Shown piece after piece: positions 10,091-21,427 of a stretch of 22,366 nucleotides of DNA. The notes under the pieces were generated by a model. It made no database searches. It worked only from the letters and a program-made list of their open reading frames with translations, and was not told where the DNA came from. The stretch comes from a virus, in IMG/VR virus record IMGVR_UViG_3300046467_001851, positions 1 through 22,366 of that record, one strand, 5' to 3'. The position numbers and the translations under genes are program-made. Numbering within the stretch: the stretch's first letter is position 1; every line of letters starts with the position of its first letter.

Positions 10091-10568
10091 CGCGCGCGCC
10101 TATGATTCCTGCCATTTATTTCCATCCTGGAAACAGCATATCGGGCACCCGTGCCATTGGTGCGCGGTTATTGGTGTCACTATCTAACCGCCTATACGCC
10201 TATATGGCGCAACCGAATCTCGAGCGGGTGCTATCACGCCTAGTGATTCGCGATGTCTTAGCATCCCGCCTAGCGTTTCGACGAAATAGCACCAAATCTG
10301 ACCATTCCACAGCGCCGGCGACACACTACACGCCAGAAAAATCGACCCAGGATGTTACCCACAGCTGCACCGCGCCGGCCCTCTTTCGGGAACGGGGCCG
10401 CAGCTGGCCTGGTCGAATTGCGGCGCCGAATTGCGGGGCGACCGTTAACGTCCTGGGACGGGACTGCAATGCGGACACGCCAGAACGCTAAAGTCAGGTT
10501 GATCATTTTACCGATATAGAGTACCGTACCGTCTGTGTTGAAACGAGTCTTTTATAGGAGTGCATACT
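10091..10568. other. Gene-poor region with CGCCTA clusters, upstream of the small-gene run
   Basis: No convincing gene lies here. One long plus-strand frame is open, but it would start at or inside the terminator, has no SD and is low-complexity Arg/Ser/Pro. CGCCTA occurs five times (10097, 10189, 10197, 10237, 10267), and ATCAC-GCCTA-GTGAT is a small perfect hairpin over one of them. GAATTGCGG occurs twice near 10415-10436. ACACGCCAGAA occurs twice (10328 and 10475). The far end holds TTTTACCGATATAGAG (10506-10521), like the motif before 5018. It may be a regulatory or origin region. Confidence 0.4.
10505..10521 (+). promoter_or_regulatory. Candidate promoter/operator of the small-gene run
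   Basis: TTTACCGATATAGA (10507-10520) matches TTTACCGGTATAGA of the phosphoesterase promoter at 13 of 14 positions, and lies 48 bases before the ATG at 10569. A shorter relative, TTACCTATAGAG, lies at 8743-8754 before the gene at 8786. Confidence 0.35.
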
Positions 10569-10964
10569 ATGACGAGTTCGCAGGATCAACAGAAGGACAA
10601 TCAACGTGTCATGAAGATGGTGCGTGCTGACACCGAGGCGTTCATGGAGGCTCACGAGATGGGCGTCACGCGACCGCAGGACATGCTGCGGAATGATACG
10701 GCGGAGGAACTCGGCGTGTATCTCGAGGGACTCGGCGAAGAGTACCGCGACCTCAGCGTTAAAGAGTTCATCGACCGCGAGTGGGACATTGAGTTACCGC
10801 ATGGTCAGCACGACATGTCAGACATGCCGCTCTACTCGGAAGTAGGCAAAGCCTGCATGGAACTCGCGCGGCATATCGACGGGGCGGCGCCCCACTGCTT
10901 GGACTATCAAGGCGAGTTGTATCGCGTTGCCATCCGTCAGATGCAGTGTTTCGCCTACAGTTAA
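10569..10964 (+). CDS. Hypothetical acidic protein, first of the small-gene run
   Basis: A 131-residue protein starting MTSSQDQQKDNQRVMKMVR. A GTG 9 bases upstream is in frame, but the ATG has the better SD spacing (AGGAG, 9 bases). The sequence is acidic and helical (EAFMEAHEMGVTRPQDMLRN, LGVYLEGLGEEYRDLSVKEFIDREW), with no cysteine cluster or membrane segment. It shares the leader GGAGTGCATNCTATGACGAGT with the next gene and a similar MTS start, but the proteins do not align beyond that. Its SD is complementary over 11 bases (AGGAGTGCATA) to the loop of the candidate RNA at 15143. Confidence 0.7.
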   Translation: MTSSQDQQKDNQRVMKMVRADTEAFMEAHEMGVTRPQDMLRNDTAEELGVYLEGLGEEYRDLSVKEFIDREWDIELPHGQHDMSDMPLYSEVGKACMELARHIDGAAPHCLDYQGELYRVAIRQMQCFAYS

Positions 10965-10992
10965 TCACCACCAATGAAAAGGAGTGCATGCT

Positions 10993-11415
10993 ATGACGAG
11001 TGCAGATTACGAACACCGGGTACAAGCCATGGAAGCCGAGGGCATGACCCGGAGCGATGCCCAAGGAGTCGTCGACGCGGAGGACTTGCAGAGTCCATGC
11101 GACCGCGAGTTTCCGCAGTGGGAATTCCACGAGGGATTCCGCGACGAGGTGATGCCACTGCTCGCGGATTGGTCATGGCGAAACGACACGATGCCCTGCT
11201 TCCTCGACGAGGACACGGGTCTGATCATTTGGGCTAACCACCTCGATGAGTCGAAGAGAGACTACCCGAGCGACATGTCCGTCTACACTGCTGAACTCGC
11301 CCTCAAGGGCGATGACGGGGAGTGGGAACACGGGCACGGACAGCAACCGGTCATGGAGACAGACAGCCTTGAGGAGATCAAGGACTTCATCCTGCAGCGC
11401 CGGCTCATGTGGTAA
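10993..11415 (+). CDS. Hypothetical protein with a leader complementary to the candidate small RNA
   Basis: A 140-residue protein starting MTSADYEHRVQAMEAEGMT. The ATG at 10993 has SD AAAAGGAG; an in-frame GTG lies 9 bases upstream. The N-terminal stretch EGMTRSDAQGVVDAED resembles a short helix pair seen near the start of various phage proteins. The rest is acidic with Trp-rich parts (FPQWEFHEGF, LADWSWRND) and an amphipathic C-terminal helix, SLEEIKDFILQRRLMW. Function is unknown. The 13 bases AAAAGGAGTGCAT covering its ribosome-binding site are an exact complement of the hairpin loop at 15171-15183, so its translation is the best candidate for control by that RNA. Confidence 0.7.
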   Translation: MTSADYEHRVQAMEAEGMTRSDAQGVVDAEDLQSPCDREFPQWEFHEGFRDEVMPLLADWSWRNDTMPCFLDEDTGLIIWANHLDESKRDYPSDMSVYTAELALKGDDGEWEHGHGQQPVMETDSLEEIKDFILQRRLMW

Positions 11416-11516
11416 CCCAACTAGTCGAAACGCCCTCCGGGGCGTCGTGGCAGGTCTGACTTCCTGCTGCCTGACGAGACAGGTCAGTTTATACCCCCAT
11501 CACAAGGAGAGAGACT
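11416..11516 (+). other. Spacer with inverted repeats
   Basis: A 101-bp spacer. CGCCC and GGGCG face each other around TCCG near 11431-11444, and CTGAC (11456) pairs with GTCAG further on. The SD AAGGAG closes the spacer. No T run follows either hairpin, so termination is not supported. Confidence 0.35.
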
Positions 11517-11684: not shown

Positions 11685-11777
11685 TCCCGCTGCCGCCTGA
11701 CCTGACCCAGGCAACCTGGGTCGATGAGGTTAGCCCGTACGCGCAACACGCCAGAAACCTTTTGAAGGAGTGCAACC
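11685..11777 (+). promoter_or_regulatory. Spacer with perfect hairpin and ACACGCCAGAAA element
   Basis: GACCCAGG (11704-11711) and CCTGGGTC (11715-11722) form a perfect 8-bp stem with a CAA loop. It is followed by ACACGCCAGAAA (11746-11757) and then the leader AACCTTTTGAAGGAGTGCA before the ATG at 11778. The order hairpin, ACACGCCAGAAA, SD recurs before 12337. Confidence 0.5.
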
Positions 11778-12026
11778 ATGAAAGAGAAAGTCACGACAAC
11801 CTGTCCCTGCGGAACTTCTATCCCCGTGCCATTGACCGAGCAGGGGTACGACGTATGCAGCGTCGAGTGCCATGCCTGTGGTCGCCTGTCAACAGGTGGC
11901 AATGGAAGAACAGGAGAGGTGGATGGGTGGGTTACTGCCAAGGATGCAGGGCAGTCCCAAGCGGCATACGAGGCAATGCAATTTGATGTTGATATGAATG
12001 AGTGGTATGGACGAGGCAACTGGTAA
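11778..12026 (+). CDS. Small cysteine-rich protein, probable zinc binder
   Basis: An 82-residue protein starting MKEKVTTTCPCGTSIPVP, with SD GAAGGAG 8 bases before ATG. C9-P-C11, then C27-S-V-E-C31 and H32-A-C34, give five cysteines and a histidine within 26 residues, which suggests a compact metal-binding domain. The second half is polar (GEVDGWVTAKDAGQSQAAYEAMQFD) and the tail is NEWYGRGNW. No named family is recognised. A plus-strand frame starting at 11762 covers the same bases but is a shadow. Its SD matches the complement of the 15143 RNA loop over 10 bases. Confidence 0.65.
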   Translation: MKEKVTTTCPCGTSIPVPLTEQGYDVCSVECHACGRLSTGGNGRTGEVDGWVTAKDAGQSQAAYEAMQFDVDMNEWYGRGNW

Positions 12027-12045
12027 CCTTTTCGAGGAGTGCATT

Positions 12046-12234
12046 ATGAAAATCGAATACCTGATTCACGCTTTCGATGACGGCGAACCCCGAAAGATAG
12101 AGTACTGGCACAAGGACAACATGTGCTGCGTTCAGGATGTCTTGTGTCGCGGCATCGTCGGCACGGGCAAAACAATTGGCCCCGCCCTCAGAGATTTAGA
12201 AAAACATCTTAGTGGCGACCTGTTCCAGTTCTAA
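12046..12234 (+). CDS. Hypothetical small protein
   Basis: A 62-residue protein starting MKIEYLIHAFDDGEPRKIEYW. The ATG at 12046 has SD GAGGAG; a longer in-frame start at 11998 lies inside the previous gene and has no SD. The fold looks mixed, with two strands at the start, a MCCVQDVLC cysteine patch and a C-terminal helix, IGPALRDLEKHLSGDLFQF. The leader AGGAGTGCAT is complementary over 10 bases to the 15143 RNA loop. Function is unknown. Confidence 0.65.
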   Translation: MKIEYLIHAFDDGEPRKIEYWHKDNMCCVQDVLCRGIVGTGKTIGPALRDLEKHLSGDLFQF

Positions 12235-12336
12235 CACCAACCCCGCGACTCAGGCGCCCTAGACCGGGGCGGCTCTGTCCTTGGGCCTGGCTACCAGGGC
12301 TGAGTAACTACACGCCAGAAAAGGAGGAGGTGCATC
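12235..12336 (+). promoter_or_regulatory. Structured spacer with ACACGCCAGAAAA element
   Basis: CTCAG and CCCT (12249-12260) can pair with AGGG and CTGAG (12296-12304), enclosing a GC-rich segment. CCTGG-CTA-CCAGG (12286-12298) is an alternative small hairpin. ACTACACGCCAGAAAA (12307-12322) follows and is identical over 16 bases to 10325-10340. Then comes AGGAGGAGGTGCATC before the ATG at 12337. Confidence 0.5.
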
Positions 12337-14049: not shown

Positions 14050-14335
14050 GGAAGATATCGAAGAGATCCGGCAGGTCGTTTCGCCGCTGATATCCGAACA
14101 CCAGCAGTTGCAGCAGTCGCTGGTCGATATCGTCAAGGAGTTTGACGGTCGAATGATCGCGATGTCTAGTGCGATCAACACCATGGTACAGATCCTCACT
14201 GGCCCGCAGGTGCAGCAACCCCTAGCCCCACCTGCGGGAGGAATCTCCACCGCGCCTGCCGAACGTGCGGTCTACAATGTCGTTTCGACCGAAGACGAGT
14301 TACCCACCACGCTGGAAGATGGAGAAGATACATGA
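13994..14335 (+). CDS. Coiled-coil protein
   Basis: A GTG start with a perfect SD (AGGAGG, 8 bases) gives 113 residues starting MTEIKTKKLTTAQRVRQI. Residues about 12-65 are a long heptad-type helix (IEEDIEEIRQVVSPLISEHQQLQQSLVDIV), then a flexible Pro/Ala region (PQVQQPLAPPAGG) and an acidic tail. It probably forms an oligomer. It is coupled to the recombinase gene by an ATGA overlap, so it might assist recombination. No family is recognised. Confidence 0.65.
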   Translation: MTEIKTKKLTTAQRVRQIEEDIEEIRQVVSPLISEHQQLQQSLVDIVKEFDGRMIAMSSAINTMVQILTGPQVQQPLAPPAGGISTAPAERAVYNVVSTEDELPTTLEDGEDT

Positions 14336-15135
14336 AGGTTTACGGCTACCTCCGAGTCTCTACTGATAAACAAAGCGACTCTCTTGCGTCACAGGAAAGT
14401 CTCGTTGAGGATTACTTCGAGCGAATGAAGAAGCTCGGAGATCTCCCAGAGGACACGACGTTCAGTGGCTGCTTCGCCGACGAGGATAAGAGTGGTAGCA
14501 CTCCACTGTTCGAACGGCCGGCGGGGTACGAGATGCTCAAGGTGATTCGTCCAGGTGACCATATCATCGTGGCAAAGCATGACCGCGCGTTCCGCTGCAT
14601 GATGGATGCCTGCACCACGATCAAGCAGTTGCAGACTCAGGACGTTGAGCTGCACATGATCAACCTGGGTGTTTCGCCGAGCAACCCAATTGGGAAGTTC
14701 GTGTTTCACATCATGTCGGCCTTCGCGGAATTAGAGGTCGAGTTCATCAGAGCCAGAATTAAGGATGCGTTGGCTCACCGTAAACGCACCGGCCGGCCGG
14801 TCAACCAGTCGACCCCTCTCGGATACAAGAGACAGAAAGTCGAGGGGGAGGTCCGCTTTGTACCTAACAGGGATGAGGTCGCGATGTGTTACCAGATCAG
14901 GGATCTACGAGACGCTGGCTTGTCGTGGCCGGAGTGCGCCACAACTATTGCGAAAGAGCATGGTTGGAAGTGTCCGTCAACTGGCACGGACTGGTCCGTA
15001 CGGCTGGCGAAGCGGGCGTACCAGGCAACGCTCGACAACTTCCCGAGATACGACGGGAGGACCCTCGACGACTTCTCGGAGAATCACCGACAGCGGCAGC
15101 ACGATATAGCGATGAGTGATCGGGTGGATGTATAA
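14332..15135 (+). CDS. Serine recombinase (resolvase/invertase family)
   Basis: A 267-residue protein starting MKVYGYLRVSTDKQSD. The catalytic domain shows YLRVS with nucleophile S10, DEDKSGST, and AKHDRAFRCMMD where family members have a D-R-x-x-R segment, then GKFVFHIMSAFAELEVEFIRARI, the linker to helix E. After about residue 160, GRPVNQSTPLGYKRQ begins a short Recombinase-type domain, and a basic C-terminal part (RLAKRAYQATL) follows. It is longer than a minimal resolvase and much shorter than large serine integrases. It could invert, resolve or integrate DNA; no inverted site or att core was found here. The stop codon overlaps the TATAAT box of the candidate RNA. Confidence 0.9.
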   Translation: MKVYGYLRVSTDKQSDSLASQESLVEDYFERMKKLGDLPEDTTFSGCFADEDKSGSTPLFERPAGYEMLKVIRPGDHIIVAKHDRAFRCMMDACTTIKQLQTQDVELHMINLGVSPSNPIGKFVFHIMSAFAELEVEFIRARIKDALAHRKRTGRPVNQSTPLGYKRQKVEGEVRFVPNRDEVAMCYQIRDLRDAGLSWPECATTIAKEHGWKCPSTGTDWSVRLAKRAYQATLDNFPRYDGRTLDDFSENHRQRQHDIAMSDRVDV

Positions 15136-15136
15136 T
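15131..15136 (+). promoter_or_regulatory. Consensus -10 box of the candidate small RNA
   Basis: A perfect TATAAT at 15131-15136, 17 bases before the hairpin, predicts a start near 15143. No matching -35 hexamer lies 17 bases upstream (the position reads AGCGAT), so activity may depend on an activator. The phosphoesterase promoter has the same combination of a perfect -10 and a poor -35. Confidence 0.5.
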
Positions 15137-15142
15137 GATGAC

Positions 15143-15205
15143 TGATCCCCGAGGGGGGGCGTTAGCGTTTATGCACTCCTTTTCGCTGGCGCCTCCCCAA
15201 TTTTT
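15143..15205 (+). ncRNA. Candidate small RNA with anti-Shine-Dalgarno loop and terminator
   Basis: Bases 15153-15167 pair with 15184-15198 in a 15-bp stem (three G-T pairs), and TTTTT follows at 15201-15205, so the element is a good intrinsic terminator. The 16-base loop TTTATGCACTCCTTTT (15168-15183) is the complement of AAAAGGAGTGCATAAA. The leader at 10977-10989 matches 13 bases of this exactly, and the leaders before 10569, 11778 and 12046 match 10-11. With the TATAAT box upstream, this looks like a free-standing RNA of about 60 nt whose loop could pair with and block these ribosome-binding sites. At the least it is the terminator of the recombinase gene. RNA evidence is absent. Confidence 0.6.
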
Positions 15206-15215
15206 CTCGAGGTGA

Positions 15216-15407
15216 ATGATGATCAAGAAGGGCGTGAAGCAAGATCGACGCGGTGATCGGCAAGATCATAAGATTGACAAGATTGACGCCAAAGCAAATA
15301 AGGCGTTGGCTGTCAGCAAGAAGCGTGCGGCCCTGGCTTCGATCCTGAAGTGGTTAGTCGTGCTGATCGGCGTGGGGTATCTCGTTTTCAAATTTAGCCG
15401 AGGGTAA
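15216..15407 (+). CDS. Small basic membrane protein
   Basis: A 63-residue protein starting MMIKKGVKQDRRGDRQDHK, with GAGG upstream. Residues 1-40 are strongly basic and polar with a lysine-rich repeat (HKIDKIDAKANKA). Residues about 43-59 (SILKWLVVLIGVGYLVF) form one membrane helix, ending KFSRG. The charge pattern favours the N-terminal part in the cytoplasm. The second ATG (15219) could also be used. Function is unknown; it is the first of three tandem membrane proteins. Confidence 0.6.
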   Translation: MMIKKGVKQDRRGDRQDHKIDKIDAKANKALAVSKKRAALASILKWLVVLIGVGYLVFKFSRG

Positions 15408-20673: not shown

Positions 20674-20928
20674 ATGAGAGACTGGGGGTTAGGCAGCGAC
20701 AGCGAGAAGAAGCGTGACCCTGTAACCCAGCCCGAACACTACGTTCAGGGTAAGGTGGAGGTAATCGATGCCATCATGCTGCTCGGCCTCGACCCCTGTG
20801 CCGGTAACGTGCTGAAATATATTGCCAGGTTCCAGATGAAGGGTGGCAGGCAAGACCTCGAGAAGGCTCGCCAGTACATCACGTTGATGCTCGATAACTA
20901 CGAGGACTGGTATGGATCCGACGGCTGA
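20674..20928 (+). CDS. DUF3310 family protein
   Basis: An 84-residue protein from ATG 20674 (MRDWGLGSDSEKKRDPVTQ), with SD GGAGG; an in-frame GTG lies 3 bases upstream. DPVTQPEHYVQGKVEVIDAIMLLGLDPCAGNVLKYIARFQMKGGRQDLEKARQYI carries the DUF3310 signature: P-x-H-Y at the start, E-V-I-D, GN-x-x-KYI-R and a DL-KA-x-Y helix. The family is common in phages and sometimes called nucleotide kinase, but activity is not proven for it. The gene overlaps the HNH gene by 17 bases. Confidence 0.88.
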   Translation: MRDWGLGSDSEKKRDPVTQPEHYVQGKVEVIDAIMLLGLDPCAGNVLKYIARFQMKGGRQDLEKARQYITLMLDNYEDWYGSDG

Positions 20929-21427
20929 CGACGAGCTTCTCTCCGAAGCATACACCCTGATCCTGGCTACTCTAGCCCGCGATCTATCAGGCAATCATAA
21001 TAACGAGAGGAAACTCTCTGGATGGATTGCCAGGTATGTCGAAAGGGACAGGCAGAAGAGAGGACGCCCCCTGAATGGATTGCTAGGTATGTCGAAAGAG
21101 ACAGACAGAAGGAACTGGGCCAGCGAGCATGACGTCTGCTGGATATGTGGGGAACGAGATTATCGCGGCTTCCCGCTCGAGACACATGAAATGGAACGTC
21201 GTAGTCAGGCGCCGACACGCTGGATGCAGAGGTGCAACTACTTCCGTACCTGCAAGATCTGCCACATGGACAAGCTCGCGTCCATGGCACACGCCCGGCA
21301 ATTGGCCTACAAGCAGGCCAAGGATCCAGAGAACTATGATCTCCAAGTCTGGCTAAAGATCCGCGACCCGGACCTCCATGCGCCTAACCGTGTTACGCAG
21401 GAAGACGTTGACGTGTTCAATGAATAA
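20912..21427 (+). CDS. HNH-type endonuclease-like protein, possible fusion
   Basis: A 171-residue frame starting MDPTADDELLSEAYTLIL, with SD GAGG. Residues about 76-125 form a zinc/HNH-like module: C76-W-I-C79, ETHEMERR with the candidate catalytic His, RCNYF, and C-K-I-C-H, seen in HNH nucleases of phages. Residues 1-55 are a separate helical part. The junction contains a 37-bp near-duplicate in shifted frame (21022-21058 and 21075-21111). Without it the first part would end after ERDRQKELGQRA and the HNH part would begin at ATG 21089 (MSKETDRRNWASEHD). So this may be a natural fusion of two overlapping genes. Confidence 0.7.
   Translation: MDPTADDELLSEAYTLILATLARDLSGNHNNERKLSGWIARYVERDRQKRGRPLNGLLGMSKETDRRNWASEHDVCWICGERDYRGFPLETHEMERRSQAPTRWMQRCNYFRTCKICHMDKLASMAHARQLAYKQAKDPENYDLQVWLKIRDPDLHAPNRVTQEDVDVFNE
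21022..21058 (+). repeat. 37-bp direct repeat, copy 1
   Basis: Begins ATGGATTGCCAGG. It matches copy 2 at 34 of 37 positions and is read here as WIARYVERDRQK. Confidence 0.9.
21075..21111 (+). repeat. 37-bp direct repeat, copy 2
   Basis: Begins ATGGATTGCTAGG. It lies 53 bases from copy 1, not a multiple of three, so it is read in a different frame as GLLGMSKETDRR. Confidence 0.9.

What the first reader, a model, noticed from the sequence alone, without database searches (positions are those of the whole stretch)
15131..15205. Candidate phage small RNA whose hairpin loop is complementary to several phage ribosome-binding sites
A perfect TATAAT is followed 17 bases later by a 15-bp stem, a 16-base loop and a five-T run, the layout of a free-standing RNA of about 60 nt. 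The loop TTTATGCACTCCTTTT is the exact complement of AAAAGGAGTGCAT before the gene at 10993 (13 bases), AGGAGTGCATA before 10569 (11), AAGGAGTGCA before 11778 (10) and AGGAGTGCAT before 12046 (10). A single-stranded loop presenting an anti-SD sequence would allow translation of four genes to be repressed together. I know of no described phage RNA of this design.
Basis: partly seen in the sequence, partly recalled or inferred. Interest (0 to 1): 0.9.

Follow-up and report, generated by a model that had tools for sequence, protein, structure and literature searches.

The report
Phage hairpin complementary to start-site repeats
A virus of bacteria carries a strong RNA-type hairpin whose exposed loop is the mirror match of a repeated start signal in front of four of its own genes, and an unrelated, well-studied phage group turns out to carry the same arrangement, which suggests (but does not prove) that such phages use an RNA to control a whole set of genes at once.

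Summary
At 15153-15198 a 15-bp stem with a 16-nt loop is followed by AATTTTT; it is the strongest terminator-like hairpin in the window. The loop is exactly complementary to four ribosome-binding sites (14, 11, 10 and 10 nt). No other 16-mer outside the leaders matches two or more, and about 1 in 2000 random anti-SD loops does as well. The promoter claim is weak: the TATAAT overlaps a stop codon and has no -35.

Relatives keep a hairpin with a large pyrimidine loop in the same gene region (CTCCTTTT invariant in one lineage), but their loops match their own leaders only over the SD core. The extended pairing is therefore private to this phage.

The best support is independent. Cluster K mycobacteriophages carry 13-bp Start Associated Sequences at start codons. 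[quoted passage not shown] In the three I examined that copy is the loop of a strong, conserved, largely unannotated hairpin. A third group with such repeats (Microbacterium EF) lacks one.

Verdict: probably a terminator-type regulatory hairpin acting through an anti-start-site loop, like Listeria LhrC. New variant of a known kind; function unproven.

The parts
15153..15198 (+). Hairpin: stem 15153-15167 / 15184-15198 (15 pairs), loop 15168-15183
   Evidence: -30.8 kcal/mol alone, strongest terminator-like hairpin of the window
15168..15183 (+). Loop TTTATGCACTCCTTTT, complementary to four leaders; P(unpaired) of the UCCUU core 0.88-1.0
15199..15205 (+). AATTTTT tail, terminator-like
   Evidence: sequence
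15131..15136 (+). TATAAT claimed as -10; overlaps the stop codon TAA 15133-15135 of the recombinase; no -35
10976..10989 (+). Leader of gene 10993-11415: GAAAAGGAGTGCAT, 14 nt complementary to loop plus closing base
10556..10566 (+). Leader of gene 10569-10964: AGGAGTGCATA, 11 nt
11765..11774 (+). Leader of gene 11778-12026: AAGGAGTGCA, 10 nt
12035..12044 (+). Leader of gene 12046-12234: AGGAGTGCAT, 10 nt
12318..12326 (+). Weaker fifth leader (gene 12337): GAAAAGGAG, 9 nt, then interrupted (GAGGTGCAT)
14332..15135 (+). Serine recombinase gene (Pfam Resolvase) just upstream
15135..15215 (+). 26-codon open frame that exactly fills the gap (TAATG ... TGAATG) and runs through the hairpin; not found in relatives
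   Evidence: sequence; relatives
15216..15407 (+). Next gene, small membrane-type protein (homologue in L090, 47%)

Best explanation
The element is an intrinsic-terminator-type hairpin at the end of the SSB-recombinase segment of the early region. Its transcript's 3' end, left by termination or processing and probably not from its own promoter, presents a single-stranded loop that pairs with the repeated start signal (A)AGGAGTGCAT in front of four small early genes. Pairing covers the Shine-Dalgarno sequence and would block 30S binding, so the RNA would repress the set together as feedback once transcription reaches 15.2 kb. Shown: hairpin, loop, tail, complementarity, its rarity, recurrence of pyrimidine-loop hairpins in relatives, and the same design in Cluster K1 mycobacteriophages. 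Inferred: that the RNA is made, accumulates, pairs in the cell and represses.
For: Rarity of the complementarity. The leader motif is conserved beyond what 16S rRNA can pair with (TGCAT), as in the SAS of Cluster K. Hairpins with a large loop holding UCCUU occur in the same gene region in the L090 lineage (CTCCTTTT invariant in five distinct sequences) and the L119 lineage; in an unbiased scan of 1.48 Mb the window, L090 and L103 score highest. The window loop is far larger than those of most strong terminator-like hairpins of the group. Independent parallel: in Adephagia, Angelica and Anaya the only reverse copy of the SAS core (CTCCTATCC, expected 0.003-0.017 per genome part) is the loop of a strong hairpin. 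The loop CCTCCTATCC is invariant in 8 aligned phages while the stem varies with partly compensatory changes.
Against: No close relative of the early region exists in the collections, so loop-leader covariation could not be tested near the window. In more distant relatives the loops match their own leaders only over 8 nt or less (L090 group). No promoter. In Cluster K the anti-SAS loop is confined to Anayavirus (plus Amohnition with one bulge); Pixie, Keshu, Yuna, SirPhilip and Marshawn lack it, and Microbacterium cluster EF, which has SAS-like repeats, has no anti-SAS hairpin. The four leaders are two duplicated pairs, and the match was found post hoc.
Confidence: 0.45

Rival explanations
1. 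Plain intrinsic terminator: the hairpin only ends transcription after the recombinase gene; the loop-leader match is a coincidence helped by pyrimidine-rich loops and by duplicated leaders.
For: Strong G+C stem plus AATTTTT; relatives have hairpins with U-rich tails at equivalent places whose loops match own leaders only at the SD core; no promoter.
Against: 16-nt loop unusual for a terminator; match frequency about 5e-4 given an anti-SD loop; pyrimidine loop kept in three lineages; same design in Cluster K1.
Confidence: 0.32
2. A very short gene: the 26-codon frame 15135-15215 (MMTDPRGGALAFMHSFSLAPPQFFSR) fills the gap exactly, stop-start coupled at both ends, and the hairpin is part of its mRNA.
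For: TAATG and TGAATG junctions, open frame; tight gene packing in the region.
Against: Only a weak SD; no comparable start-coupled frame at the equivalent hairpins of L090 and L119; sequence dominated by the inverted repeat.
Confidence: 0.1
3. Cis-acting switch: the hairpin (extended by CCCCGAG with CTCGAGG) controls read-through or translation of the next gene 15216/15219 rather than distant genes.
For: MFE of 15137-15215 pairs the SD region of the next gene with the foot of the hairpin.
Against: Does not explain the loop-leader complementarity; the extension is not seen in relatives.
Confidence: 0.08
4. DNA-level element: a recombinase site or an inverted, decayed copy of the leader cassette.
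For: Next to a serine recombinase; 17 of 19 bp inverted match to the 10993 leader.
Against: In L090 and L119 the hairpin is not tied to a recombinase end; strand-specific U-tract; similarity stops at the loop.
Confidence: 0.05

Closest known systems
LhrC sRNAs of Listeria monocytogenes (PMC4132741)
   Same: CUCCC...UUUU motif in hairpin loops including the terminator loop pairs with a Shine-Dalgarno region and blocks translation; redundant C-rich loops
   Different: Bacterial, own promoters, several motifs per RNA, short (UCCC) core; here one phage hairpin, 10-14 nt complementarity to a repeated start motif
Start Associated Sequences of Cluster K mycobacteriophages (PMC3203893) and of Microbacterium cluster EF (PMC7302621)
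   Same: Highly conserved extended RBS repeated before several non-structural genes; papers leave open what binds them; K1 phages also have one reverse copy, shown here to be a hairpin loop
   Different: Other sequence (GGGATAGGAGCCC, GGGAAAGGACCCC), 10-19 copies against 4; EF has no anti-SAS hairpin
c4 antisense RNA of phages P1/P7 (Rfam RF01695; Citron and Schuster 1990, as reviewed in PMC12197685)
   Same: Phage-encoded antisense RNA regulating a phage mRNA (from own knowledge: through complementarity near a ribosome-binding site)
   Different: From own knowledge: one target, processed from its target's own transcript, two short complementary blocks; no Rfam match here

Membership tests
Intrinsic (Rho-independent) terminator | G+C-rich stem directly followed by a U-run | tested here: met
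   two A between stem and five T
Intrinsic (Rho-independent) terminator | Short loop (about 3-8 nt) | tested here: not met
   16 nt; other strong terminator-like hairpins of the group mostly 3-11
Intrinsic (Rho-independent) terminator | Ends transcription | not testable with these tools
   no transcript data
LhrC-like anti-SD loop sRNA (works like) | C/U-rich loop complementary to an SD region | tested here: met
LhrC-like anti-SD loop sRNA (works like) | Own promoter, discrete RNA | tested here: inconclusive
   TATAAT without -35; transcripts not testable
LhrC-like anti-SD loop sRNA (works like) | Represses targets through pairing | not testable with these tools
   none
c4 antisense RNA (RF01695) | Covariance-model match | tested here: not met
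   no match in the Rfam scan
SAS / anti-SAS design (Cluster K1) | Extended RBS repeated at several starts, conserved beyond 16S pairing | tested here: met
   AGGAGTGCA before 4 genes, 3 of them with T
SAS / anti-SAS design (Cluster K1) | Single reverse copy in a hairpin loop | tested here: met
   window 15168-15183; Adephagia, Angelica, Anaya
SAS / anti-SAS design (Cluster K1) | Homology between the two RNAs | tested here: not met
   by inspection no shared sequence outside the CTCCT core; works alike, not a member

The most novel reading that the evidence does not exclude
Unrelated phages have independently evolved one hairpin RNA that recognises a repeated start-associated sequence and so sets translation of a whole group of genes: an RNA-run translational regulon. 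It would explain what the Start Associated Sequences of some mycobacteriophages are for.
Probability: 0.35. Interest if true: 0.85.

Novelty: new variant of a known kind. Interest (0 to 1): 0.62.

Why it matters
Phages are thought to time gene sets mainly by promoters and terminators. One RNA acting on a repeated ribosome-binding signal would be a simple translational regulon. The Cluster K link turns a question stated in 2011 (what, RNA or protein, recognises the Start Associated Sequences) into a bench test with cultured laboratory phages such as Adephagia and M. smegmatis.

Tried and rejected
Nucleotide search of the hairpin region in phage records: no match. Exact loop pattern in 2.9 million viral contigs: none. 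Recombinase and GP88 proteins as probes: no loci. Leader pattern AGGAGTGCATRCTATGA: 6 contigs, none with a matching reverse copy, near the chance expectation. Loop-leader covariation in relatives: not found; the AAAAGGAG target is rare in them. The idea that the window carries the relatives' pseudoknot RNA: rejected. Antitermination (loop TATCCTC with the terminator arm GGGGATA in L125) was considered from the sequence; there is no equivalent second terminator in the window. Prediction of an anti-SAS hairpin in Microbacterium cluster EF: failed. tRNA/tmRNA: none. Rfam: no family at the hairpin. One accession for TM4 was not in the collection, so the K2 subcluster was not examined.

Full report
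What is there. The window is a whole IMG/VR record of 22,366 bases, a fragment. It carries a major capsid protein on the - strand (503-1639) and, from about 8.8 kb on, early genes on the + strand: GP88-like, many small genes, SSB (13424), serine recombinase (14332-15135), helicase (17802), annealing protein (16834). Between the recombinase and the next gene lies an 80-base gap with the hairpin. The TATAAT is part of the recombinase's stop (GTA TAA T) and has no -35. And the gap is also exactly filled by a 26-codon open frame.

Is it more than chance? The hairpin folds at -33.2 kcal/mol (z -3.1). Of 39,090 other 16-mers in the window outside leaders, none is complementary to two or more leaders over 10 nt. 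Of 200,000 random loops that already contain CTCCTT, 98 match four leaders over 10 nt. The non-SD half of the loop is what makes the difference: shuffling it reaches the observed mean duplex energy in 5 of 2000 cases. The motif ATGCACTCC is expected 0.08 times in the window, and about 1.6% of 9-mers lie in such loops. The four leaders are two near-duplicate pairs, so they count as fewer than four independent hits. The selection is post hoc.

Relatives. Nothing in the phage collection matches the region's DNA. The capsid protein found 80 relatives, and syntenic early regions were reached through the helicase and annealing protein. In the L090 lineage (L090, L115, L117, L137, L159) an intergenic hairpin in the corresponding stretch has a loop whose 5' part varies (TTAT, TTAA, TTTAA, GGTTGA) while CTCCTTTT is invariant. 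In the L119/L136 lineage the hairpin GGGTGCCC...GGGGCACCC exposes GTCCTTCC or GTCCTTTCC. In L103/L125 a hairpin with loop TTATCCTCCTTT sits between SSB and recombinase. In an unbiased scan of 1.48 Mb for stems around CTCCTT, the window, L090 and L103 are the top scores. The upstream genes of window and L090 are not demonstrably homologous, so 'same gene region' is as far as I go. When each loop is compared with its own and with other phages' leaders, only the window's loop stands out (14 nt and five leaders at 9 nt or more); the L090-group loops reach 8 nt, no better than foreign loops. So the pyrimidine loop is shared, but the extended pairing is not.

An independent parallel. Extended RBS repeats are known: Cluster K mycobacteriophages have 11-19 copies of GGGATAGGAGCCC at start codons. 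The authors say positions 10-13 cannot pair with 16S rRNA and leave open whether host- or phage-encoded RNA or protein binds them; [quoted passage not shown] I looked at that copy in Adephagia, Angelica and Anaya (CrimD's was not examined on its own). In all three it is the loop of a strong hairpin inside an intergenic stretch found in 164 phage records, unannotated in most of those listed, though covered by small 'hypothetical protein' calls in some, and unknown to Rfam. The loop CCTCCTATCC is invariant in Adephagia, Angelica, Anaya, LastHope, Kashi, Yunkel11, Niklas, Amelie and Murucutumbu, while the stem varies; two pairs change on both sides, several by wobble, 92% of cells paired against 38-47% when slid. 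Other Cluster K genera have pyrimidine loops that fit the SAS less well (Amohnition with one bulge; Amgine, Shandong1, Bryler and Ximenita not better than shuffles) or none (Pixie, Keshu, Yuna, SirPhilip, Marshawn). CTCCTATCC is expected 0.003-0.017 times in the stretches searched. As a prediction test I took Microbacterium cluster EF phage AnnaSerena, which has ten copies of GGGAAAGGACCCC (PMC7302621): no anti-SAS hairpin was found. The design therefore exists in two unrelated groups but is not universal among phages with such repeats.

Mechanism. The most economical model is a terminator-type hairpin whose loop pairs with the start signals, as the terminator loop of Listeria LhrC pairs with the lapB Shine-Dalgarno (PMC4132741). 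The loop is open in the predicted fold (P unpaired 0.88-1.0). The leaders are partly open (0.36-0.67). I put this at 0.45. A plain terminator with a coincidental loop is the main rival (0.32). All functional steps are inferred.

Novelty. Anti-SD loops are a known mechanism and c4 is a known phage antisense RNA, so this is a new variant of a known kind. What would be new is one phage RNA addressing a repeated start-associated sequence, and a candidate partner for the mycobacteriophage SAS.

Noticed in passing
L119:2932-2971, L136:3277-3316, L121:3716-3754, L126:5386-5424, L130:36-74, L132:4435-4473, L131:3887-3926, L138:839-878, L140:5063-5101, L103:9380-9419(-): Conserved H-type pseudoknot RNA (GCC-N9-GTGGC-N2/3-GTAAC) near SSB/recombinase in relatives, followed by a small hairpin, CUCC and a terminator. 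92% of pairs kept, 7 of 10 pairs with two-sided changes, covariation 0.63 against 0.20 shuffled. No Rfam match in L126, L131, L138, L140; absent from the window. Likely an undescribed phage RNA family.
   Followed up: partly
11423-11488 +: Type II hammerhead ribozyme candidate between early genes: Rfam RF02276, 32.4 bits (gathering 37), E 5e-5 on the local stretch; core GAAA, GUC, CUGACGA present.
   Followed up: partly
L238:38440-38830 (Adephagia) and 163 other Cluster K records: Structured intergenic RNA-like stretch of roughly 250-300 nt near the right end, unannotated in most listed records, with several strong hairpins beyond the anti-SAS one.
   Followed up: partly
10328, 10475, 11746, 12310, 12746 (+): Repeat ACACGCCAGAAA (0-1 mismatch) five times in the early region; possible regulatory site.
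   Followed up: no
21005-21110: 53-bp tandem duplication, 85% identical, inside gene 20912-21427.
   Followed up: no
L226: A contig binned in a SAR202 Chloroflexi genome (QEVV01000018.1) encodes the group's helicase at 58%: weak host hint.
   Followed up: no
L090:8650-8850: About 150-nt intergenic stretch with long inverted repeats (CCGTCTAGC...GCTAGACGG) and a repeated CTTGCCGGTTGTTT, possibly another structured RNA.
   Followed up: no
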